Below are positions 1 through 54,067 of a DNA stretch of 64,000 nucleotides, piece by piece. Below the pieces are notes generated by a model that was not told the DNA's origin, ran no database searches, and worked only from the letters and a program-made list of their open reading frames with translations. Each line of letters opens with the position of its first letter. Positions within the stretch are counted from its first letter, which is position 1. A program made the position numbers and the translations under genes. Origin of the DNA: Entoloma clypeatum (Eukaryota; Basidiomycota; Agaricomycetes; Agaricales; Entolomataceae); contig OY751492.1 of NCBI GenBank assembly GCA_963565915.1, positions 372,001 to 436,000 on the forward strand, written 5' to 3'.

Positions 1-1870
1 ATCCCCGGAAATGATGACAATGACAGTCATTACGAAAAACCTCACGACCCTGTTCCCACTGGACAGGATCACCCTGAATCAGACGATGACTTACCGTCTA
101 GCGAGCCCGACGATGAACCATGAGTACCCACTCTGGAACCTGAACAAGTACCAGATCGACCGATCAGGGAACGACGAGTTCGGAGAATGCCAGGTAGCAT
201 CTATGGGGAAGACACCCCTGCTTCTGATCTTGAAAAAATGGATCAAAGACGTAGATTAGGCGGTCAAACGGCATGGATAAACGATCTCCTAATGGAGGCA
301 ATCTCTATCCAAGTGGGCATCATTGAAATGTCACACAAAGATATATACCCTCTTCCAAACAAAGAAGATTGGTATGCGGCAGAACGAAAAGAGCTAGACA
401 TGCTCAAAAGCCGCGGGGTGATCACGGAGTTAGTACCCCTACCTACAGGGAGGAAAGCTCTAAGGAACAAATGGGTTTACAATGAAAAATCCGATGGGTG
501 TTTGAAAGCGAGCCTTGTCACAAAAGGTTTCTCACAGGTAGAAGGGATCGACTTCGATCAGATCTTCTCACTGGTAGTGAGGTACGAGACCGTCTGGTTG
601 ATTCTGGCATTGACAGCCCTTGAAGGGTGGTTCATGACATTCTTGGACGTCTCATCAGCCTTCCTCTATGGAACACTCCATGAGGAAATTTACATGCGAC
701 AGCCTGAGGGCTACATAGTAAAAGAGAAAGAACACTTCGTGTACCGACTATACAAAGCCCTATATGGACTTAAGCAGGCCGCATTAGCCTGGTGGAGGGA
801 ACTCGATTCCTCCATGAAAAAGCTCGGTTTTGTCCAGCTTCACTCCGATGCGGGAGTTTTCATTCACACAAGTACCAAAGGGGAAATTGTGATCGCCGTC
901 ATTTATGTCGATGACTCTGCTTTTCTCGGCACAAACCGAGAGTACACGCTAGAGAAGAAGAAGGCCTTCATGACAACATGGGAATGTAGGGACCTAGGCC
1001 ACCTAGTGTCTAATGGGGAACCGAAAGAATTTCTCTCAATCCAAATAAGGCAACGTGGGAAGAAGATCTTCATTGATCAAGTACCTTACCTTGAGAAAAT
1101 TCTCGCACGAATGGGAATGAGCGAATCCAATGCCACCCACACCCCACTCCCGATGGGCTACAAACCCATGAAGTCCGAAGATGAACCCAATGCGGAACTC
1201 AGATCCAAGTACCAATCCATCATCAGATCACTATTGTACTTAATGATTGGGACAAGACCCGACATTTGTTTCGCCGTGATCAAAATGTCCCAATTTTCCG
1301 CAAACCCTACCAAACGCCATTTAGAAGTGGCAAGGGATATTTGCAGGTATTTGAAGGCAACGAAAGATTACGCAATCATGTATGATGGTGATTCTGGGAA
1401 AGGAATCTACGCATTTACAGACTCTGATTGGGCATCAGACGAAAACACCAGAAAAGTCCACCACTGGTTATTTCATATTGCTGGCGTCTGGAGCAGTAAC
1501 ATGGGTTTCATTGGCGCAAAAAACCATTGCCCTCTCTTCCACAGAAGCAGAGTACATGGCGCTATCAGATTGCAGTCGCGCAGTGACATGGCTTAGAAGC
1601 ATGCTTGCCGAACTTGGAATGCAGATCGGATCAGTTCCGATCTATGGAGACAACAATGGCTCCGCCTTTATTGCATCCAATCCTGTAACTGAGAAGCGAT
1701 CCAAGCACATCGACGTGTGATTCCACTTTGTCAGAGAAAAAGTATCTGAAGGAATTATTACAGTCGAATTCATCGAAGGAGTGAATAACCCTGCAGACCT
1801 TTTAACTAAGAATCTGGGGAAAATCCTCTTCAACAAGTTTATCCTGTACTTTGGATTACTTAAAAACTAG
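1..1870 (+). pseudogene. Ty1/copia retrotransposon pol remnant (RT-RNase H)
   Basis: This is the 3' half of a copia polyprotein. After a linker comes the reverse transcriptase, with an active site reading YVDDS instead of the usual YVDDG, and then RNase H (TDSDWASD, later SSTEAEYMAL). It is broken in at least three places. There is a TGA at 121-123 and another TGA at 1718-1720 in the HIDV-x-FHFVRE stretch, where relatives carry Arg, so a CGA to TGA change is likely. A frameshift near 1450-1465 moves RNase H to another frame. Reading continues to a TAG at 1868-1870. The gag, protease and integrase portions lie outside the window or are lost. It cannot make a working polyprotein. Confidence 0.9.
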
Positions 1871-11660: not shown

Positions 11661-12914
11661 TCAAATCTGCGAGGGAGGAGTTATCGATTTGCCACGTGCG
11701 GAGAAAGTATCAAACCCTCCCCACCCATCCGCCAACCACCCCACAATCAACGGCGTCAACTCCCCAAGTTTCCTCTCTCCGTCCCTCCCCCATATAAAAT
11801 CGAGATACGGATCGTCATGCACCCCATGCTCCTGCAGGATCAGCCTCGCGCCGCTGTGCACCTCACACAAGCCCTGTCCAAACCGCACGATATCGTCCTT
11901 GAAACACTCCGCTCCCCCCACGCTCACCAGCACACGCTCCGCGACTTGCGAGATGCCGTCCCACCACCCCTTCGGAGCTTTCACCGCCTCCAGGTACGGG
12001 AGCGCGTCAGTGGGGAGACCGGCAAGGACGAGGTCGGCCCAGTAGTGGATCGCGCGGGTGCCGATCGTGTCTGAGGAGTTGTTGGCTGTCATGGATGGAG
12101 CGTCGGAGGTGAGGCAGACCCAAGGGGACATGAGGTACACGCCGGCAAAAGGGGAGGAGAGGGTGAGCGGTGGGACTGACGGGATGGGGTGGAGGATGTG
12201 GGAGATGAGCTGCAGGATGAGGTTGGCACCGGCGGAGTCGCTGGTGAGTTGTAGGTTGTGGGGTTCGAGACCGATGGAGAGGAGGTATTGTATGGCGAGT
12301 ACGGCTTGAGTGAGTTGCGTTGGGAAGGTCGCGGTTGGGATGAGGGCTGTAGGGATGTCAGTGTATGTGAGCCAAAAAAAGCAGGGGTTGCGCACAATAG
12401 TTTAGGACGGCGAGACCGACTTCTTTGTCCTTGGCCTTCAATTCCTGCTTTACATAATTCCAAAAGCTCGCCGCGACGTCCTGCATCGGGAAGATGAAAG
12501 CCCCGCCATGAATCCACAGAATCACCTTGTCCTTCCTCCGCTCCCCGATCCATAGCAACCTTGCGTTCATGTCCAGCTCATCGACAAGATTGGGAAGCTT
12601 GTTAGCGCGGGTCCACGTCCTGTAAACGCTGTGAGTCGTGCCCGTCAACCACTGCAGCTGCCTGGCGTTCAAGGTCCGTGTGGCGTGGTGCGATACCTTA
12701 TCGCCCACGACGCGTTTCCAGCTCTTGTGGCGATTGTTGTGGTGTAAGGGTGATGTTAGAAGTGTCCATATGAGGACGATGGCTACGGAAATTCGAAAAA
12801 ACGCGGGGAGTGAGAGTGAAAGTGAGAATAAAACATACGTAAGTGGAAGAAGATCGAAGCATATGTCCCGATTTTCTCGGCGAATGTGGCTTGACCGTAG
12901 GAGGTATCTCTCAT
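11661..12914 (-). CDS. Alpha/beta hydrolase fold-3 esterase (copy A)
   Basis: Three exons (12914-12839, 12782-12396, 12346-11661) give 382 codons. A hydrophobic N-terminal segment suggests a membrane anchor. The oxyanion motif HGGAF sits near residue 115 and the nucleophile serine (about 192) lies in SDSAG, where most relatives have GDSAG. A likely catalytic His is in VHDDPYLDF. The family includes steryl acetyl hydrolases and related lipid or xenobiotic esterases; substrate unknown. It is a paralogue of the gene at 21170-22470: both share an intron at the codon after LNY and a similar N-terminal arrangement. Copy A lacks the intron that splits the HGG motif in copy B. Confidence 0.82.
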
Positions 12915-21169: not shown

Positions 21170-22470
21170 ATGTCGAGGCCATACGCTGATGTGTCATGGA
21201 TAGACATAGCCTCGATCTTTCTTCCTCTGTTCCAACTTCGTGAGTCGTCTTTTGGGCCGTCTTCACTCAATATTCAGGTTTCGCACCCCTCAAACATGCA
21301 TTGTTCCAACAGCTTTTCTTCTCCTGTGGACCGCTTTCAAACACCTCGTGACCGTTTACGCTCATTCAACCCGCCGTGGCCGGCGCAAAACATGGCGTCG
21401 ATCACTCGGCGATACCGCTTTCCGCTTCCTAACAGAGAGGTGGAGCATCCAGCAATTGCAGTTTGCTCTTGGGACATCAAAGCATGTGTACGAGAAGTGG
21501 GCGAAGCAGAATGGGCTGCCGGCGTATGTGGAGCCGGTGGGCGAGGATGCTCGGCTCCTCTGGATTGGACCGCGCCAGACGAAACGCGTCGTTCTTTACT
21601 TTCATGGTAAGGAGATCTCATTTGGATTGGATCGTAAATGATATGGTCCCGGCATTGCCGGTGATAGGTGGAGGGTACCTTCTTCCCTTGTCTGATTTCG
21701 CTGTGTCATTCTGGAACCACGCTCGGAAAGAGTGTAAACGGGACGGTATGGACGTTGGGTTCGCCATTCTGAATTATTGTGAGTGTTCGAAAAGCGTCCA
21801 CGAATTTCTTTTTTTAAAATCCGTCGCCGCAGCTCTCGTACCAACAGCTCGCTTTCCAAAACAGCTCACACAAGCCGTCGCAGCATTGCAGCACGTCATC
21901 ACGAAGCTTAAGGTACACCCCGGGAACATCCAGATCACAGGAGATTCTGCGGGGGCAAACCTCGCGCTCGCACTTCTGTCACATCTCATGCATCCCCTCG
22001 ACGGAATACCTCAGTTAACATTGCCTTCGCCGCTCAAGGGCGTCTACTTCATGTCGCCGTGGTTCTGCCTCACTGCCGACAGAGCTTCCCTGGCAAACAA
22101 AGACGCCACGGACGTAGTCGGCGTCGAAACCTACCTCGACTGCGCGCGCAAAGTCCTAGCAGGCGGCGTCCCCCGTTCGGTCTACCCGTACCTAGTCGCA
22201 ACCACCGCTCCCGATTCGTGGTTCGCGGGGATAGACAGAGTCGTCGAGCGTATCCTCGTGACGACAGGCGGTGCTGAGTGCCTGCGAGACGAGACTTTGA
22301 AGGTAGCGGAGCGTATCAGGAAGCACCATGACGGGACGACGATCGTTGTGCAGGAGGGCGGGGTGCATAACGACCCTTTTTTCGATTTTCTGGCTGGGGA
22401 GAGGGAGTTGTGCACGTTGGCGCCAGTTATCGTGGAGTGGGTTTCTGAGGGCTTTGCAAAAGAGGGATGA
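21170..22470 (+). CDS. Alpha/beta hydrolase fold-3 esterase (copy B)
   Basis: Four exons (21170-21239, 21313-21606, 21668-21778, 21833-22470) give 370 codons. The N-terminus is hydrophobic (IASIFLPLFQL, then FLLLWTAF), suggesting a membrane anchor. HGGGY forms the oxyanion hole and is split by intron 2. The nucleophile Ser (about 197) is in the canonical GDSAG, and HNDPFFDF carries a likely catalytic His. It is the paralogue of the gene at 11661-12914, on the opposite strand about 8.3 kb away. The family includes steryl acetyl hydrolase and related esterases. Substrate unknown. Confidence 0.85.
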
Positions 22471-24526: not shown

Positions 24527-24726
24527 NNNNNNNNNNNNNNNNNNNNNNNNNNNNNNNNNNNNNNNNNNNNNNNNNNNNNNNNNNNNNNNNNNNNNNNNNN
24601 NNNNNNNNNNNNNNNNNNNNNNNNNNNNNNNNNNNNNNNNNNNNNNNNNNNNNNNNNNNNNNNNNNNNNNNNNNNNNNNNNNNNNNNNNNNNNNNNNNNN
24701 NNNNNNNNNNNNNNNNNNNNNNNNNN
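24527..24726. other. Assembly gap (200 N)
   Basis: Exactly 200 unknown bases, a conventional scaffold gap; true size unknown. Confidence 1.
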
Positions 24727-25681: not shown

Positions 25682-26303
25682 TTAGCGCAGCTTGCTAAAC
25701 AGTTTCGGAGCAGCGGAGTCCTGCGGGCAGATGTCAGCGAACAGGAGCCAAAAGGAGGTTGAAACGCACGTCTACACAGTGCATCATGCTAAGATACAGA
25801 ATCCTCTGGGTTAGTTACTGTCAACCAGGAACGGTTGGGATACGCACTGGACTAGATATTCCAGGAAAAACGGATAGATATGTCAGTCCGAGAACTTCTA
25901 CGTTCGACAAAGAGACTTACACCTAGAGGTTGTGCACACGTTTAGTAATGCTCAACGCAGAAAGCAGGATACGACGTACAGCTCCTCAACACAGTCCTCA
26001 CCCTTGGAACCCTGCCCGCCATGGACTTTCTCTTGGCAATGTTCAAAGTGTCTGGCCAGTGCAGCGCATTTTGCTGATTCCTTGCACTCTTCCCGAATAC
26101 TTGGGTGAATCTGTACGGCCACGGCGTCACCGTGATATACCAGCTCGGCCCAGCGGGGGGGTACTCACGTCTTCCGGTTCCTCTTCTTCTGGTTCGGCTT
26201 CGGCTTGGGCCTCCTCGGTGGCCTGTTCTGGCTTCTCCTCCTCCGAATCGTTATGTATAGTTGAGAAGAATGACGAGAAGAACGAGGAAACGCCGGAGCT
26301 CAT
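25682..26303 (-). CDS. QCR6: Cytochrome bc1 complex subunit 6 (acidic hinge protein)
   Basis: Six exons (26303-26169, 26110-25980, 25922-25921, 25851-25848, 25788-25770, 25720-25682) join to 109 codons. The start MSSGVSSFFSSFFSTI leads into a very acidic stretch (AEPEEEEPED) and then the paired-cysteine domain: REECKESAKC, FEHCQEK, GEDCVEEL, MMHC. The protein ends APKLFSKLR. It bridges cytochrome c1 and cytochrome c in complex III of the inner mitochondrial membrane. Exons 3 (GT) and 4 (TCCA) are 2 and 4 nt long. Without both, the frame breaks, and with them the sequence reads EELFHMMHC as in other fungi. All five introns are GT-AG and 49-69 nt long. Confidence 0.9.
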
Positions 26304-33372: not shown

Positions 33373-35935
33373 ATGTCTTCCGTTCACACCCTTTTTCGAC
33401 GATTGCAGACCGTCGGGAAGGGGGCTTATGGATCGGTTCACAAGGCCATTCACATCCCATCTGGAAACGTCGTGGCACTGAAGATAATCAATTTCGACGA
33501 GAAAAGCGCCGAGGCATACGTCGATGTGCAGGACATCCAGCGGGAAGTAGCTTTACTAACCGAACTTAGAGATGCCCCAAACATTACCAAGTACTATGGC
33601 TGCTACCTTGATGGTCCCCGCGTATGGATCGTCATGGAATTCGCGCAAGGTGGCAGCGTCTATTCGTTGATGAAAGCATCTCCCGGCGGGTGCATCGAGG
33701 AGAAGTACGCAAGCGTCGTCATTCGCGAGGTTCTTCTTGGTTTATCCTATCTCCATAAGTCGAATATCATTCACCGGGACATCAAAGCCGCCAACGTCCT
33801 TATCACGGCCTCAGGGAAGGTAATGCTCTGCGACTTCGGCGTCGCAGCTCGTCTGGCGACTGCGTCTAGCAAACGAAACACTATGATGGGGACTCTTCTC
33901 TGGATGGCGCCTGAAGTCGTTGCCACTACACCTGCATACGACACCAAGGCGGACATTTGGAGCTTGGGTATCATGATCCACGAGATGATCAAGGGCGCTC
34001 CTCCTCACGCAAATATGACAGACGTCTCTAAAGCTATCGATATGATTGCCAGAGCGCCCCCACCTCGCCTAAACGAAGCTGACGGAAGTCGCGACATGAA
34101 AGAATTTGTGGCGTCTTGCTTGAAAGAGCGGCCATCGGAGGTATGATGATAATAGATCTCAACAACCCCCGATGATCCTCAGCTTCCATCCCAGCGCCCA
34201 AATGTAGAAGAGTTAGGAAGAACTAAGTGGATTAAGTCCGTTGCTAAGACGTCCTTGTCGGTGCTTAGAGATCTCATCGTTCGGTACGATAACTTCATCG
34301 CCGAGAAAGGTCCTCGTGCAAGTCTCGCTGCACCATTAGAATGGGAAGAAGACGAGGACCAAGGGTAGGTAATTCGTTTCCAATACTTCCAACACTTTCT
34401 AACTTTGTTTATAGTGACGCCAGTCCAGCGGAAACTACCACGCAGCATTCATGGGAGTTCGACACAGTCAGAGGGTATCTTCCCCCATCTTTCTTCGCGG
34501 AAGACAAAAGGCAAGCCCAGGAAGCCGAGTCTGGAGCAGGTGATACTTCAACGATACGAGCCACGGCCCCAGTTCCAGTCCCTACGTCTCTTCGGAGTCT
34601 CTTCAAAGAGGAAGACAGTCCGCAAATCAAACTTCCCGAGTTCAGAGAAAGAAATCTCTCCGCGCCGTCCCTTTCACCGACAGGTGCTGCAGCACCTGAG
34701 CGGGTCAAGCCGAAACGTGCAGTGACCACTGACGAGAACGTCTATCCTTCCTTCCGCCCACCAAAATCCCCAATTCCGCCGTTAGGTCCAGGAATCCCAC
34801 GAAAAAAGTTTTCGGAGAGCCCTTCTAGCGAGGCCAGTTCAACCTCAACGGTTGTAATGAGCGGTACTCCTCATGAAGAGCTCCTTTCGCGTTCGTTTGA
34901 GAGCTCTTCCTCCCAGAAATCGGACCATCCATCAGAGCCCCCGCTCACAGAAGAGCCGGCTCCAGACACACAGAAGCGGACTTTCATCCGGCCGCCAATC
35001 CGAAGGGCTGCCACCGCGGCCGTGGTAGCAGATGAGCAACTCCAATCACCCTCATCTTCGTCTCCGACTTTGACGATGCGCCGCGCGAATCCCATACCCA
35101 TCTCGAACACGACCGCTTTCCCATCCACAGCCCAAGGCCTGTCGTATTCGTTTGATGCCCCCGATTCAGTGTTTAACCTGAAGTCACCTGGCCCTTATCC
35201 AGTACGGTCCAGATCTGCGACTGCTTCGATCTCGGATGCGGGACCGCTGTCCAGTGGCACGAGCGGAAAGCCCCCGAGCGTGCCTACGCCAGGCTGGCAA
35301 CAGCTGATGTCCCCGACGGAGGAACTTCTGCCCCCGATCAAGCCTTTTGCGCAATCACGACGAGGTAGAAGTGAGAGCTCTGGGAGCGAGTCGTCCGCCG
35401 TCCCTGGTCTGAAGGATGTTCTTAAGGTGAAAAAAAAAACCCATCCCACTCAGCCCTTTTTTCACCATGTTGACGAAAACCCCACAAGGTCCCATCTTTA
35501 TCATCTGAACATCATCTAGGTATTGCGGACCTTTTACCGCCCTCACCTGCTCCCGTGTACAACGCCTCGCGTAGTTTCATGCCCTCGCCGAGCGCGTTGA
35601 GCAGTTCTTCGACACCAGCCGAACATGCGACTCCAAGCAGAGAGGAGCCTGTATCTTCTGCACCGTCAACCGCGACGACGGCCACTCCTTTCCCTCTCGA
35701 CATTCCAGGTCCAAGTTCACCGAGGTCTTTTGATGCGACAATTCCGTCACTGAACTTCGGGGATCTCATTGCCGATCCTGATTACGCACATACGCAACTG
35801 GCGAAAACAGTTGACGATCTTGCCAGATTGCTGTCGGTCGTTGAGGATGGCTTGGTTGGGATGTTAGACGGTGCAGGTAGTGAGACGATTAAGGAGGAGC
35901 GAGAAGATTTGGCCCCGCCGTTGAGCACATCGTAG
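33373..35935 (+). CDS. Ste20/GCK-family serine/threonine kinase (Kic1/Nak1-like)
   Basis: Four exons (33373-34140, 34195-34364, 34415-35426, 35489-35935) join to 798 codons. The kinase domain fills residues 8 to about 265: glycine loop VGKGAYGSV, catalytic Lys in VALKII, HRDIKAAN, DFG and a GCK-type activation segment ending MAPEV. Intron 1 falls in subdomain XI (KERPSE/RPNVEEL). The long Ser/Pro-rich tail carries a conserved-looking SSEHHLGIADLLPPSP and a short helix near the end. Layout and tail suggest the fungal Kic1/Nak1 branch that drives polarity and cell separation through the NDR kinase pathway. The orthology is inferred. Confidence 0.85.
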
Positions 35936-48767: not shown

Positions 48768-51700
48768 TCACTTAGAATCCCGGGTAGGTTTCGTAAGTGG
48801 AGTATAAGGCTCTTTAAACTTCATCCGAAGTAGAGCACGGAATTTCTCAAATTCCTGGCGACCAAGTGGCTTGGTAAACATATCAGCCGGATTCTCTGTT
48901 CCCGGAACGAACCGTGGTTCGATCAATCCATCTTGAACTCTATCGCGTATAGCAAAGTGATGGATTGCTATATGTTTGGTTCTGCCTTCAGTGACTGGGT
49001 TTTGCGCATTGAAAATCGCGCCTTGGTTATCTACATGGAACGGCATTTTGGTAATGTCCTGTAGTCCAAGCTCTTTGAAGAGATGAGTAACCCATTCGCA
49101 TTCTCGCGAACATTCACTGGCAGCAATCATTTCCGCCTCAGTGGACGAATGTGCCACTGTCTTTTGCTTGCGACTTTTCCAAAGAACAAGTCCTCCTGCA
49201 AGCTTAAGGAAATATCCCGATTGGGATTTTCTATCAGATGGGTCTGATGCCCAGTCTGAATCTGTCCATGCTTCAAAGGAAGCTTTGGATCGACCATCAT
49301 AGATTATAGAATAGTCTTGAGTACCGACAAGATATCTGATAATCCGCAGAGCGTATTTCTCATGCTCTTTGGAAGGGTTTGCAGACATTTGTGACATTTT
49401 TGCAACTGCAAAAGCAATGTCCGGTCTCGTTCCAATGGACAAGTACAACAACGATCCAATGATCATTTGGTACCTTGTTTTGAGTGTGGGATCCACCTCC
49501 CCCTCATTTGGTGCAGGGTAATAACCCTTTGGGAGTGGAGTGTCAGCAGCCTTTGCATTTTCTAAGCCAAAGCGCTTAATGATCTTCTTTAGGTATTCTG
49601 ACTGATCGATTGTTACGATCTGCTTTTCTGAATCTTGTCGTATTCTCATACGCAAGAATTCTTTAGCAATACCAAGATCACGACTTTCCCATTTATTTTT
49701 AAAGTCAGATTTTATCTTGCGAACAAGATCTGGGTTTGATCCCATGAACAGGCCGTCATCAACATAGATCAAAGCGATTATCAAATCACCTGATTGTTTG
49801 TTGTGGTAAACAAAGACGCCTGAGTCGGTTCTACATCGAGTAAAACCTAGCTTCTCCATTGATGCATTGAGCGCGATCCACCACGCTCTCGCAGCCTGTT
49901 TTAGGCCATAGAGTGCTTTTAATAAACGGATGACCTTCCGTTCTTGGCCTTTGACAACAAAGCCTTCGGGTTGATTCATATAGATTTCCTCATCGAGCTC
50001 TCCATAGAGAAAAGCTGATTTGACATCTACTCCTTCAATCACCCACCCTTCAAGCGCAGCTACGGCGAAGAGGATTCGGATAGTCTCGAAACGTATCACA
50101 GGTGAGAAGATCTCATCAAAATCGATACCCTCGATCTGTGAGAAACCCTTGGCAACGAGTCGTGCCTTCTTTCGTCCGTCAGTTTTGACGTCGAATACCC
50201 ATCGATTTCTGATGGTTTTACGACCTTTAGGCAGGTCAACCAACTTAAAGACATTGCGCTTCCGGAGGGCTTCTAGTTCCTCACGGCATGCTGCTTTCCA
50301 TTCAAGCTTTTCCTTTTCAGGTAGCTTATTTATGTCCTTCATTTGCCAAGACTTTGGGTCTTGTGGAATTTCGTCATATGCAGGGATTGCTTTAGATAGC
50401 AAGTGCGCAAGCATTTGTGACTGTCCTCCCCCTTCCCTAATATAGAGTGATTCCTCCATATTTATATCCGGATTCGGATTGGAATTGTTCTGATACATCT
50501 GAGGATCAGCGGAGCTAGTTGATGGAACAGCGCCAGATTGCTGGGGTCTGGTCTCCGATCGGGGATTATAGGCGTATCGCCGTGAATCCTCCTGAACGGT
50601 TCTGCTCCAATCACGCTGATTTTGACGCAAGGCCTCAGCCGGGTTGTTCCCGTAAACATTTCCAGGACGCTGGGGTATAACCCGAGTACGACGAGGACGA
50701 TCAGTTTGTGGGCGATAATCTCCTGGTAAGGTATGATCATCGTTTGGCGCATCTGTGCGCACACGTTTCCCTGGATTGCGAGTCCGGGGAACCCACTGCT
50801 GATTCTCAGCGGTGTCCTGTCTGTTTGTTCCATCAGAAGTCTGACTGGAACCTTCGGGAAGCTGACCAGTTTGGTCGCTATTTGTATCAGGGAGGTTATG
50901 ATTGTCATCATGGTTTCCTGGATTAAACGGGTAACGTGAACCGCCAGGACCATGTGCATCATTGTTTTCCGAATGGAAATCGTCGGTTGGTAAAACAGAC
51001 GGGCCATCATGTCCATTTTCATCATCGTTTCCCATATCGTCTGATGTTGGATCATGGTATTGTGTTATCGAAGGTATTTTGTTCATTGTAGAACATTTTG
51101 GGAACAGCTGTTCATCGAACATTGCTGTGACACCTATGAAGACTACGTTGTTTGGCATCCGCATAAACCGGTAACCTTTAGTTCCAGTTTTAAAACCGAT
51201 GAAAATCATCAGTTCCGATTTAGCGGTGGTAGTGCGAATCTCTTTCGGAAGAAAGACGTAAGCACCACATCCAAAAACGTGTAGGTTCGACACATCAGGC
51301 TTTTCCTTTTTAAGGGACTCATACGGAGTAAGCCATCCATGTCTTTTCAATGGAATTCGGTTATACAAGTGAAGTGCATGTTCTACCGCAAATTGAATCC
51401 ATGTTTCGGGTAGGCAAGCATCATGCAACATAGCAAGTGCTTTATCCATTAAAGTTCTGTTAAAACGTTCCGCTCGACCATTTTGTTGTGGCTGGTGCGG
51501 CACAGTAACTTCACCCTGGATTCCCATCTCACGCATATCTGCTTGGAAAGGGACAAACTCACCGCCGCCATCAAAACGCCAAGTTTTAATTGTCGTATTG
51601 AACTGGTTTTTAACCATGGCATTAAAATCACGAAGTGCAGAGTGTGCATCGGATTTTAGTCTCAATAAAGAGATCCAGGCGTGTGATGTGTAGTCATCAA

Positions 51701-53876
51701 CAAAGCTGATATAATAATTATATTTGCCATAAGTCGCCTTCTTGAATTGCTTTAAATCCGAATGGATTAGCTCAAGAGGTGCTTTGGCGCGTGTCTGAGA
51801 TGGTGGGAAAGATTTCGAAGGCATCTTTCCAAGAGCGCATCCTTTGCAGGGTCGCTCAGTGGACGGTTTGTCCACTCCATTGAAACCTTTGACATGTTTA
51901 GAAGCATGTCGCAGTACTTCATGTGAAGGGTGTCCGAATCGCTTGTGCCAGGTGTCATAATCAACAGATTGTGAGACACTAAGACTAACCAAGTGTATTC
52001 GTTCCTCTTTAATGATCGTGGCATTTAGCCAATAAATCGATTCATTTGCCTTATGAGGATAACACATAAACAAAGGAAGACCTGAATTGGTCTTTAGCGC
52101 GATCGAACCAAATCGTCCGCTAATTTCATTTCCTTGTTTAAGGATCTCGCCTACAGATAAAAGACGAACGTCTAAATCTGGTATATAATAAACGGGTGAT
52201 AGACGAGTTATTTTATTTTGTTCTCGCCCGTTTTTCTTGATGGTGTGATTAATCAACACCGTTCCTTGTCCAAGGATCTGAATAGTGTGACCTTTCTGCG
52301 CAATTTGCACAGATTGACGATCTTTTAATGGGGTATACTCAATGAAATCATTGATGTCATAGGTAAAGTGCAACGATGCACCTGAATCAAGAATCCAATT
52401 GGATTGATTCTGTTTCTTACATTCAGCACAATTCGCATAATGAGAATTTATTTGCGCTATAAGCGCGTGTACAGCAGGTGATAAAAATACATTGGACCGC
52501 CGTCCATTCACTCGTCTCCAAAGAGGCTTCTGTGAAGTATTTGTCAACTGCGCTGTACGTGCTGTTGAATGTGAAACATACCCCATGTCGTCGTTGTTTC
52601 CATCACCACGGGAAACTTCATACTCCATATAGTCGTTGACGTATCCTTCATCGTAATAGCCCCTTATGGTGGGGGCTATGTCTTCTGTATCCATCTCATC
52701 GGCCCAGCTGATTCTACTCGGTGTCTCTTCGAAAACCGGAATGCGGTGATTCCGGGGGTCCATTGTCGGAGGCGCTGAAAGCGGCCTTGACGTCGCAGCT
52801 TCATTACGCTGAAGTGCGGGGACATCGACGAGGCGAGTCAGATTCTGAGCTGTTGGAGGGACACCAATGCTGCCAGCTAGTGTGCGCGCTCCATCCAGGT
52901 CCGTGAAAGGGCCTGGGCCAGGAATATTACCGATCGCAAGCGATTGGTTGTTCCTAATCCTCCAGTCGGTGGATGATGAGGGGTGCGGAGTGAAGATAGA
53001 CCCATTTCCGTAAATGACCGTGCTGGGTAAGGTCTGGATTGGAAGCTGCCCATCAGGGGCGCTATCCATGGCAGAGGAGGCAAAGTGCGCCTTCTCTTTA
53101 CCTTTCCAGGGTCCTTTGCCCTTGGTCTTCCCAGCGGAAGTCCCACGTCCCTTGCCTTTCCAGGGCTTGGAGTGCTGATGCGAATGCTGCTGGTTAGCAG
53201 CCGGTCCTTCCGAAGATCCCTGAGAGGGTCCAGTGCGAGGCTGGTACTTCGGGGGGTTGGGCCGAGCGCGTTTTACCGCAGAAATCTTATTCGCGTGAGC
53301 ACCTCCTTGGGACTGTGGAGCGTGCGGGTTTTTACGGAAGTATTCCGAGCGTATTTGCTCGATTACTTTCCCGATCTCGAGTACCGTGGACTGATTGCCG
53401 CCAGGCGCCACATAGTGTACCGCATCAAAGAGGATGCTGTGCACTAGACCATCGTAGCCTTGAGGCAGTCCATTCAGGATCATCATGATCCGAACGAACT
53501 TGGGAATGTCTATATGGTTATGCTCGAGTCGTTGGAAAAGGGTCTGCATCTTATCGATGCCAGATAAAGGATCGGCGGGAGAAAGAGAGGTGCGGAGGAG
53601 TTGCTGGAAATCAGCAAAGACGGTGGACGGACCGACCGTGGACAGTTTCGTGGCGATCAGGTCCCACATCTCCTTGGAGGTTTTAGCTCCCTTGATGTGA
53701 TGGACGAGAGAGTCCGAAATGGACATCTGAATAAGGCCTTGGGCCTGATCGTCCTGCTCATGCCAAGTGTTTAACTTGTCTTGGAAATCTGTCTCTTTGG
53801 GGTCAGCCGGGAACTTTTTGTCGCCGATGAGGAAATCTATATGAATCAACCCGAAGGCTTTGTTGTCAAAGGCCAA
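48768..53876 (-). CDS. Copia gag-pol polyprotein, 1702 residues, single frame
   Basis: One open frame with all usual domains: copia-type gag (residues about 20-190), a Gly/Lys-rich linker, and protease with LDSGAS (about 494). Then come the GAG-pre-integrase HxxxH and CxxC finger (WHKRFGHP, CKGCALGK) and the integrase core starting HSDL (about 705). RT has YVDDG (about 1372) and RNase H has TDSDWASD (about 1540) and SSTEAEM. No stop or frameshift occurs. The first 17 residues (MAFDNKAFGLIHIDFLI) are not real gag: they come from the antisense strand of the RT region, and roughly 40 normal N-terminal gag residues appear to be missing. Confidence 0.92.
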   Translation of the reverse strand: MAFDNKAFGLIHIDFLIGDKKFPADPKETDFQDKLNTWHEQDDQAQGLIQMSISDSLVHHIKGAKTSKEMWDLIATKLSTVGPSTVFADFQQLLRTSLSPADPLSGIDKMQTLFQRLEHNHIDIPKFVRIMMILNGLPQGYDGLVHSILFDAVHYVAPGGNQSTVLEIGKVIEQIRSEYFRKNPHAPQSQGGAHANKISAVKRARPNPPKYQPRTGPSQGSSEGPAANQQHSHQHSKPWKGKGRGTSAGKTKGKGPWKGKEKAHFASSAMDSAPDGQLPIQTLPSTVIYGNGSIFTPHPSSSTDWRIRNNQSLAIGNIPGPGPFTDLDGARTLAGSIGVPPTAQNLTRLVDVPALQRNEAATSRPLSAPPTMDPRNHRIPVFEETPSRISWADEMDTEDIAPTIRGYYDEGYVNDYMEYEVSRGDGNNDDMGYVSHSTARTAQLTNTSQKPLWRRVNGRRSNVFLSPAVHALIAQINSHYANCAECKKQNQSNWILDSGASLHFTYDINDFIEYTPLKDRQSVQIAQKGHTIQILGQGTVLINHTIKKNGREQNKITRLSPVYYIPDLDVRLLSVGEILKQGNEISGRFGSIALKTNSGLPLFMCYPHKANESIYWLNATIIKEERIHLVSLSVSQSVDYDTWHKRFGHPSHEVLRHASKHVKGFNGVDKPSTERPCKGCALGKMPSKSFPPSQTRAKAPLELIHSDLKQFKKATYGKYNYYISFVDDYTSHAWISLLRLKSDAHSALRDFNAMVKNQFNTTIKTWRFDGGGEFVPFQADMREMGIQGEVTVPHQPQQNGRAERFNRTLMDKALAMLHDACLPETWIQFAVEHALHLYNRIPLKRHGWLTPYESLKKEKPDVSNLHVFGCGAYVFLPKEIRTTTAKSELMIFIGFKTGTKGYRFMRMPNNVVFIGVTAMFDEQLFPKCSTMNKIPSITQYHDPTSDDMGNDDENGHDGPSVLPTDDFHSENNDAHGPGGSRYPFNPGNHDDNHNLPDTNSDQTGQLPEGSSQTSDGTNRQDTAENQQWVPRTRNPGKRVRTDAPNDDHTLPGDYRPQTDRPRRTRVIPQRPGNVYGNNPAEALRQNQRDWSRTVQEDSRRYAYNPRSETRPQQSGAVPSTSSADPQMYQNNSNPNPDINMEESLYIREGGGQSQMLAHLLSKAIPAYDEIPQDPKSWQMKDINKLPEKEKLEWKAACREELEALRKRNVFKLVDLPKGRKTIRNRWVFDVKTDGRKKARLVAKGFSQIEGIDFDEIFSPVIRFETIRILFAVAALEGWVIEGVDVKSAFLYGELDEEIYMNQPEGFVVKGQERKVIRLLKALYGLKQAARAWWIALNASMEKLGFTRCRTDSGVFVYHNKQSGDLIIALIYVDDGLFMGSNPDLVRKIKSDFKNKWESRDLGIAKEFLRMRIRQDSEKQIVTIDQSEYLKKIIKRFGLENAKAADTPLPKGYYPAPNEGEVDPTLKTRYQMIIGSLLYLSIGTRPDIAFAVAKMSQMSANPSKEHEKYALRIIRYLVGTQDYSIIYDGRSKASFEAWTDSDWASDPSDRKSQSGYFLKLAGGLVLWKSRKQKTVAHSSTEAEMIAASECSRECEWVTHLFKELGLQDITKMPFHVDNQGAIFNAQNPVTEGRTKHIAIHHFAIRDRVQDGLIEPRFVPGTENPADMFTKPLGRQEFEKFRALLRMKFKEPYTPLTKPTRDSK

Positions 53877-53879
53877 GAA
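53825..53879 (-). repeat. 55-bp inverted copy of the element's RT region
   Basis: 53825-53879 is the exact reverse complement of 49941-49995, which encodes an RT segment (EEIYMNQPEGF). It joins the truncated 5' LTR to the gag frame and supplies the ATG. Confidence 0.92.
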
Positions 53880-53880
53880 T

Positions 53881-54067
53881 GATTCATCGTACTAAATACA
53901 TGGGTATTTATACTAATCCAATATGCGCACGGACCATTGTACAAACAATGTATAAACAAGTCATTCGTCCGTGGTTGTACCATAAACTCACATATATGGT
54001 AACAGTGACTTATAGTCACTTCCTGTGACAAGCACATGGTGCGACATATCTGGCGATATGTTCAACA
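53881..54067 (-). repeat. Copia 5' LTR, truncated at its 3' end (187 bp)
   Basis: Identical to bases 48573-48760 of the 3' LTR, then stops at the inverted RT segment. Confidence 0.87.

What the first reader, a model, noticed from the sequence alone, without database searches (positions are those of the whole stretch)
25682..26303. QCR6 needs 2-nt and 4-nt microexons
Between ...GEDCVEEL and MMHCVD the genomic sequence is out of frame for a single intron with the expected residues. Splicing in GT (25922-25921) and TCCA (25851-25848) gives EELFHMMHC, the expected fungal sequence. All three flanking introns then have canonical GT-AG ends and normal lengths (57-69 nt). A 2-nt exon is near the lower limit of what a spliceosome can define, and it sits in a core respiratory-chain gene. 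This suggests the organism can splice through exons too small for normal exon recognition.
Basis: partly seen in the sequence, partly recalled or inferred. Interest (0 to 1): 0.92.

Follow-up and report, generated by a model that had tools for sequence, protein, structure and literature searches.

The report
Conserved 2- and 4-base exons in QCR6
A mushroom gene for a respiratory-chain subunit appears to be assembled through two exons of only two and four bases, and related mushrooms seem to share this layout although most of their database gene models get it wrong.

Summary
The - strand gene is QCR6 (complex III hinge subunit), found once in the 60 Mb genome. Six exons (135, 131, 2, 4, 19, 39 nt) give a 109-aa protein; the five introns are GT-AG, 49-69 nt. 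Of 52 GT-AG chains tried across the gap, only GT+TCCA gives EEL-FH-MMHC exactly; 3 of 20000 shuffles allow any [FY]H solution with GTRNG donors. One correction: skipping both microexons is in frame and removes only F-H, turning a CX9C cysteine pair into CX7C. Among 271 homologues, gene models outside Agaricomycetes and Dacrymycetes carry the two residues in 28 of 28, Agaricomycete models in 35 of 178; 79 of 178 lack exactly two residues there. None of 63 contig-derived proteins shows that form. Other wrong models fit a phase-2 donor, a 2-nt exon and a 4-nt TCCA exon, as far out as Cantharellales. So this is most likely an old, obligatory tandem microexon, not a peculiarity of this organism. 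Ultra-short exons are known (1 nt in plants): a new member of a known kind. No RNA of this species and no genomic DNA of a relative could be read.

The parts
26169..26303 (-). QCR6 exon 1, 135 nt, ATG to the end of EPED
   Evidence: protein match
26111..26168 (-). intron 1, 58 nt, GTGAGT...ACAG
   Evidence: score
25980..26110 (-). exon 2, 131 nt, ends GAG-GAG-CT (phase 2)
   Evidence: Pfam UCR_hinge match to this exon
25923..25979 (-). intron A, 57 nt, GTACGT, branch-like ACTAAAC, CTAG
   Evidence: 67 of 4668 decoys score as high
25921..25922 (-). microexon 1, 2 nt, GT
25852..25920 (-). intron B, 69 nt, GTAAGT, branch-like ACTGACA, CTAG
   Evidence: 6 of 4668 decoys score as high
25848..25851 (-). 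microexon 2, 4 nt, TCCA
   Evidence: TCCA followed by a GT donor fits the odd gene models P0013 and P0091
25789..25847 (-). intron C, 59 nt, GTGCGT, branch-like ACTAACC, TTAG
   Evidence: 6 of 4668 decoys score as high
25770..25788 (-). exon 5, 19 nt, C-ATG-ATG-CAC-TGT-GTA-GAC
25721..25769 (-). intron D, 49 nt, GTGCGT, branch-like GCTGACA, GCAG
25682..25720 (-). exon 6, 39 nt, DSAAPKLFSKLR and stop

Best explanation
QCR6 is read through two constitutive tandem microexons, GT (2 nt) and TCCA (4 nt), between three short introns. Each intron carries its own donor, branch-like site and acceptor and is most likely recognised as an intron. The acceptor of A and the donor of B are 2 nt apart, so spliceosomes cannot sit on both at once; A and B must be removed one after the other, each step joining a tiny exon to a neighbour. 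The 6 nt supply Phe-His and keep the second cysteine pair at CX9C spacing, so skipping should give a faulty subunit. The layout is probably as old as early Agaricomycetes and is widely missed by gene finders. Shown: the anatomy, its uniqueness among the splice solutions tried, the conserved residues and spacing, and the clade-specific misannotation pattern. Inferred: inclusion in the mRNA of this species, stepwise splicing, loss of function on skipping, and the 2+4 layout in relatives.
For: Anatomy and frame; only exact LFH solution among 52 chains; 3 of 20000 shuffles; introns A, B, C equalled by 67, 6 and 6 of 4668 decoys; Pfam 93.2 against 79.2 bits; single copy; of 63 contig-derived homologues 54 carry the two residues by script (P0195 too, by eye) and none has the skip form, while 79 of 178 NCBI Agaricomycete models are skip forms and 28 of 28 models of other fungi are right; CX9C in 117 of 118 correct forms, CX7C in 79 of 79 skip forms; wrong models that fit the layout, including P0125, whose tail fits the normal one minus two bases while 0 of 2000 shuffles do.
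Against: No transcript of this species was available. The outer donor and acceptor, used for skipping both, score as well as the microexon introns (5 of 4668 decoys). Intron A is the weakest of the three. My ab initio gene finder did not call QCR6 at all. In one search, 12 of 178 Agaricomycete models stay unexplained, 4 lack the motif, and 35 of 178 are right, so their pipelines could find the residues or those species have another layout. That contig-derived proteins come from cDNA is inferred. The layout in relatives is read from proteins, not DNA.
Confidence: 0.9

Rival explanations
1. One intron (25979-25789, 191 nt) is removed, the protein simply lacks Phe-His, and the microexons are chance.
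For: In frame; outer splice sites score well, 5 of 4668 decoys as high; 79 of 178 Agaricomycete gene models show this form.
Against: No skip form among 63 contig-derived proteins; skip forms break CX9C to CX7C in 79 of 79; 191 nt against 49-69 nt for the other introns of this gene; an exact [FY]H solution with GTRNG donors is in 3 of 20000 shuffles.
Confidence: 0.04
2. The 4-nt TCCA exon is real, but the GT stays attached to exon 2 and a non-canonical AC-AG intron of 126 nt (25977-25852) is removed; there is no 2-nt exon.
For: Intron A begins with GT, so the mRNA would be identical (sequence).
Against: Needs an unusual AC-AG intron although canonical donor, branch-like site and acceptor for A and B exist. 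In Polyporales and Cantharellales nine F-C models need CT or TT as the two bases while read-through models there end at a GT donor after TT, so the bases are not the start of intron A (inference across species).
Confidence: 0.04
3. Regulated alternative splicing: both forms are made, and the in-frame skip product (CX7C) has a role of its own.
For: The microexons sum to 6 nt, so joint skipping keeps the frame, and the outer splice sites are good.
Against: 0 of 63 contig-derived proteins show the skip form. Skip forms in gene models are what a gene finder with a minimum exon length would produce.
Confidence: 0.06

Closest known systems
1-nt constitutive microexons of plant APC11 and VPS55 and other plant microexons (PMC4674806, PMC8831610; passages seen)
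   Same: Constitutive, ultra-short, flanked by GT and AG, conserved among relatives, often missing from annotations; adjacent microexons (5 and 12 nt in rice) also occur.
   Different: Plants, other genes, single 1-nt exons or larger pairs; here 2 and 4 nt in tandem in a fungus, with joint skipping in frame.
Fungal microexons: Trichoderma Xlr2 (PMC11121469, passages), codon-sized microexons of Tuber NACHT genes (one passage of PMC4986451), exons down to 6 bp in Phanerochaete P450 genes (PMC1184071, passages)
   Same: Very small exons among short fungal introns.
   Different: Those named are codon-sized or larger or alternatively spliced; I saw no 2-nt fungal exon. A Coprinopsis annotation paper that I recall as mentioning microexons is not held, so overlap with it is possible.
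Stwintrons and recursive splicing (recalled)
   Same: Neighbouring introns removed in steps at one place.
   Different: Here every splice site is complete as it stands and exonic bases lie between the introns.

Membership tests
Ultra-short microexon (internal exon of 15 nt or less) | length of 15 nt or less | tested here: met
   2 and 4 nt
Ultra-short microexon (internal exon of 15 nt or less) | AG before and GT after each, with plausible introns on both sides | tested here: met
Ultra-short microexon (internal exon of 15 nt or less) | inclusion in the mature mRNA | not testable with these tools
   no RNA of this species; indirect support from contig-derived homologues
Ultra-short microexon (internal exon of 15 nt or less) | conserved layout in relatives | tested here: inconclusive
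   strong pattern in protein records, but no genomic DNA of a relative could be fetched (one search found none)
UCR_hinge / QCR6 (twin CX9C) subunit | Pfam UCR_hinge over its curated cut-off | tested here: met
   93.2 bits, cut-off 27.2
UCR_hinge / QCR6 (twin CX9C) subunit | two cysteine pairs at CX9C spacing, as in fungal relatives | tested here: met
   Cys 60-70 and 85-95 in the spliced protein
Stwintron | an internal intron interrupts a splice site of an outer intron (definition recalled) | tested here: not met
   donors and acceptors of A, B and C are each complete and exonic bases lie between them

The most novel reading that the evidence does not exclude
The tandem pair is a kept control point: introns A, B and C must be removed in a set order, and joint skipping makes an in-frame CX7C subunit that cannot be matured in the intermembrane space, so that splicing efficiency tunes complex III assembly in mushrooms.
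Probability: 0.06. Interest if true: 0.85.

Novelty: new member of a known kind. Interest (0 to 1): 0.6.

Why it matters
A 2-nt exon followed by a 4-nt exon, apparently kept through Agaricomycete evolution in a core respiratory gene, would be an extreme natural test of how spliceosomes handle exons with no room for exon recognition, in fungi that can be grown and transformed. It also exposes a systematic annotation error: because the two microexons sum to 6 nt, gene finders give a clean-looking but wrong protein, with CX7C in place of CX9C, in 79 of 178 Agaricomycete records examined.

Tried and rejected
Strict intron-motif scan of the window: 86 hits against 55, 75 and 76 in three Markov controls, too weak to use. 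First gene-finder settings ran away into two giant models and were discarded (one search had crashed on N). The later models gave 38 introns from six genes, partly over retroelement sequence, so I lean on the decoy comparison instead; that gene finder did not call QCR6. A scan of viral contigs for a relative's DNA found none. A single 6-nt exon: no GT-AG chain gives FH that way here. Stwintron: rejected, all splice sites are complete. Pseudogene: unlikely, one copy, open frame, full-length domain. P0118 was put in the proline class but does not decode cleanly; P0151, P0155 and P0156 (Trametes) and P0124 and P0128 (Rhizoctonia) stay unexplained. Ten paper searches: no QCR6 microexon appeared in the listings; I did not open the four papers (six phrasings of a 2-nt exon) returned no paper. 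The library holds open-licence papers only.

Full report
What was checked. The result is a 330-nt frame (stop included) for a 109-aa protein with exons of 135, 131, 2, 4, 19 and 39 nt and introns of 58, 57, 69, 59 and 49 nt, all GT-AG. Pfam calls it UCR_hinge at 93.2 bits against a cut-off of 27.2; without the two microexons it is 79.2 bits. Thirty-one distinct solved sequences match, named complex III subunit 6 or the like. The genome of 60 Mb in 20 contigs shows one copy: one match by family, and two by protein that are two exons of this gene. The fetched assembly stretch equals the window.

Is it chance? Between 25980 and 25788 there are 52 GT-AG chains with introns of at least 40 nt and at most 30 inserted bases; 17 are in frame and 15 of these have no stop. 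Only GT+TCCA gives L-F-H exactly; AA+TCCA gives L-I-H, and one 18-nt insert ends in L-F-H with four extra residues. In dinucleotide shuffles of the gap, 74 of 20000 allow any solution with F or Y followed by H, and 3 of 20000 when donors must be GTRNG. Scored for donor, branch-like site and acceptor, introns A, B and C are equalled by 67, 6 and 6 of 4668 random GT..AG pairs of the window; the outer pair that would skip both is equalled by 5 of 4668, so strength alone does not exclude skipping. The rank among 38 ab initio introns (28, 36 and 36) is a weak yardstick, since those models partly cover retroelement sequence and that gene finder missed QCR6.

A correction to the finding. The two microexons sum to 6 nt. 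A single intron 25979-25789 is therefore in frame and yields EEL-MMHC; only skipping one of the two shifts the frame. The case rests on the two residues. They lie inside the last cysteine pair: the spacings between the five cysteines are 5, 9, 14 and 9. With the microexons the pair is CX9C, without them CX7C. Over the 271 homologues examined, forms scored correct have CX9C in 117 of 118 (the other, P0214, lacks that cysteine) and skip forms have CX7C in 79 of 79. A review passage states that Qcr6/UQCRH is the complex III subunit wholly in the intermembrane space and contains Cx9C motifs; it also says that yeast without Qcr6 first seemed normal and later showed a temperature-sensitive petite phenotype (PMC8452992, passages).

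Relatives. Three protein searches gave P0001-P0271. The best named hit is Collybia nuda (73% identity). In the first 120, all 33 proteins known only from contig collections carry the two residues, while of 87 NCBI gene models 27 carry them, 45 lack exactly two residues and 15 have other sequence there. Over all 271: contig-derived, 63: 54 correct, 7 read-through at the donor, 1 L/M-C, 1 without the scripted motif (P0195, correct by eye), none a skip form. NCBI Agaricomycetes and unassigned, 178: 35 correct, 79 skip both, 16 read-through of intron A, 19 L/M-C, 9 F-C, 4 with P, 12 unexplained, 4 without motif. Dacrymycetes, 2: Calocera correct, Dacryopinax unexplained. Other fungi, 28 of 28 correct. 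'Correct' was scored loosely (F, Y, I, C or W followed by H or E). I assigned groups from organism names in the listings. The trouble is thus tied to one clade and one spot. That contig-derived proteins come from cDNA is inferred from mostly short contigs and uninterrupted frames; that other fungi are annotated right does not prove that they lack the microexons.

Decoding the wrong models. The 2+4 layout predicts how gene finders fail (on the first 215 proteins). Reading on into intron A after exon 2 ending in CT, TT or AT gives L or M followed by Y, W or a stop (20 cases). Reading on into intron B after the 2-nt exon gives TGT (cysteine) followed by an RNG codon: F-C occurs nine times and is followed by K, E, T or A in nine of nine; L/M-C (11 cases) can be either. 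Leaving out the 2 nt and using TCCA gives L, F or I followed by proline (4 cases). P0091 (Cyclocybe) L-P-V-S and P0013 (Tricholoma) I-P-V read as exon 2 + TCCA + GT donor. P0125 (Rhizoctonia) fits the normal tail minus two bases to its last residue, and 0 of 2000 shuffled tails do; it does not show that TCCA is a separate exon there. P0118 does not decode cleanly, and 11 of 215 stay unexplained. Several classes occur side by side in Rhizoctonia/Ceratobasidium (P0127 and P0129; P0133 and P0134; P0125; P0121-P0123) and in Trametes (P0208; P0196; P0160; correct P0107; but P0151, P0155 and P0156 unexplained). Read together, the two bases there are CT or TT while intron A starts with GT, so they are not simply the first bases of intron A. 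These are inferences from proteins of different species; loss of intron A could explain single entries.

How it most likely works. Three complete short introns follow one another. Recognition of introns suffices; the acceptor of A and the donor of B are 2 nt apart, so both cannot be occupied at once and removal has to be stepwise. Either order works on paper: after A goes, exon 2 plus GT stands before an intact GTAAGT; after C and B go, the acceptor of A is followed by a 25-nt exon. A passage on the Arabidopsis 1-nt exon argues likewise for intron recognition combined with removal one after the other (PMC4674806, passages). The order is not shown here.

Compared with what is known. Plants have constitutive, conserved, often unannotated microexons down to 1 nt, and adjacent microexons of 5 and 12 nt (PMC8831610, passages; PMC4674806). 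In fungi, the passages seen report a regulated microexon in Trichoderma (PMC11121469), codon-sized microexons in Tuber (PMC4986451) and exons down to 6 bp in Phanerochaete P450 genes (PMC1184071). Ten paper searches listed no QCR6 microexon, and six phrasings of a 2-nt exon returned no paper; a Coprinopsis annotation paper that I recall as mentioning microexons was not held. So it is a new member of a known kind, notable for size, tandem arrangement, apparent age and the clean-looking error it causes.

Verdict. Observation confirmed with one correction. Interpretation partly supported: the microexons are very likely real, but not a peculiarity of this organism.

Noticed in passing
48771-53891 (-): Long open stretch with copia-type LTR retroelement domains (RVT_2, gag, integrase core).
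   Followed up: partly
187-1386 (+): A second stretch with an RVT_2 reverse transcriptase domain.
   Followed up: no
33373-34140 (+): Protein kinase domain (PF00069, 206.8 bits) in the first exon of a predicted gene.
   Followed up: no
21547-22467 (+) and 11664-12344 (-): Two alpha/beta hydrolase fold stretches that also match steryl acetyl hydrolase.
   Followed up: no
24527-24726: A run of 200 N in the window, just downstream of QCR6.
   Followed up: no
P0169, P0173, P0184, P0231 (Mycena and Favolaschia records): Skip forms with I at the place where correct relatives such as P0036 and P0051 have M, as expected if exon 2 ends in AT and the next base is taken from the wrong exon.
   Followed up: partly
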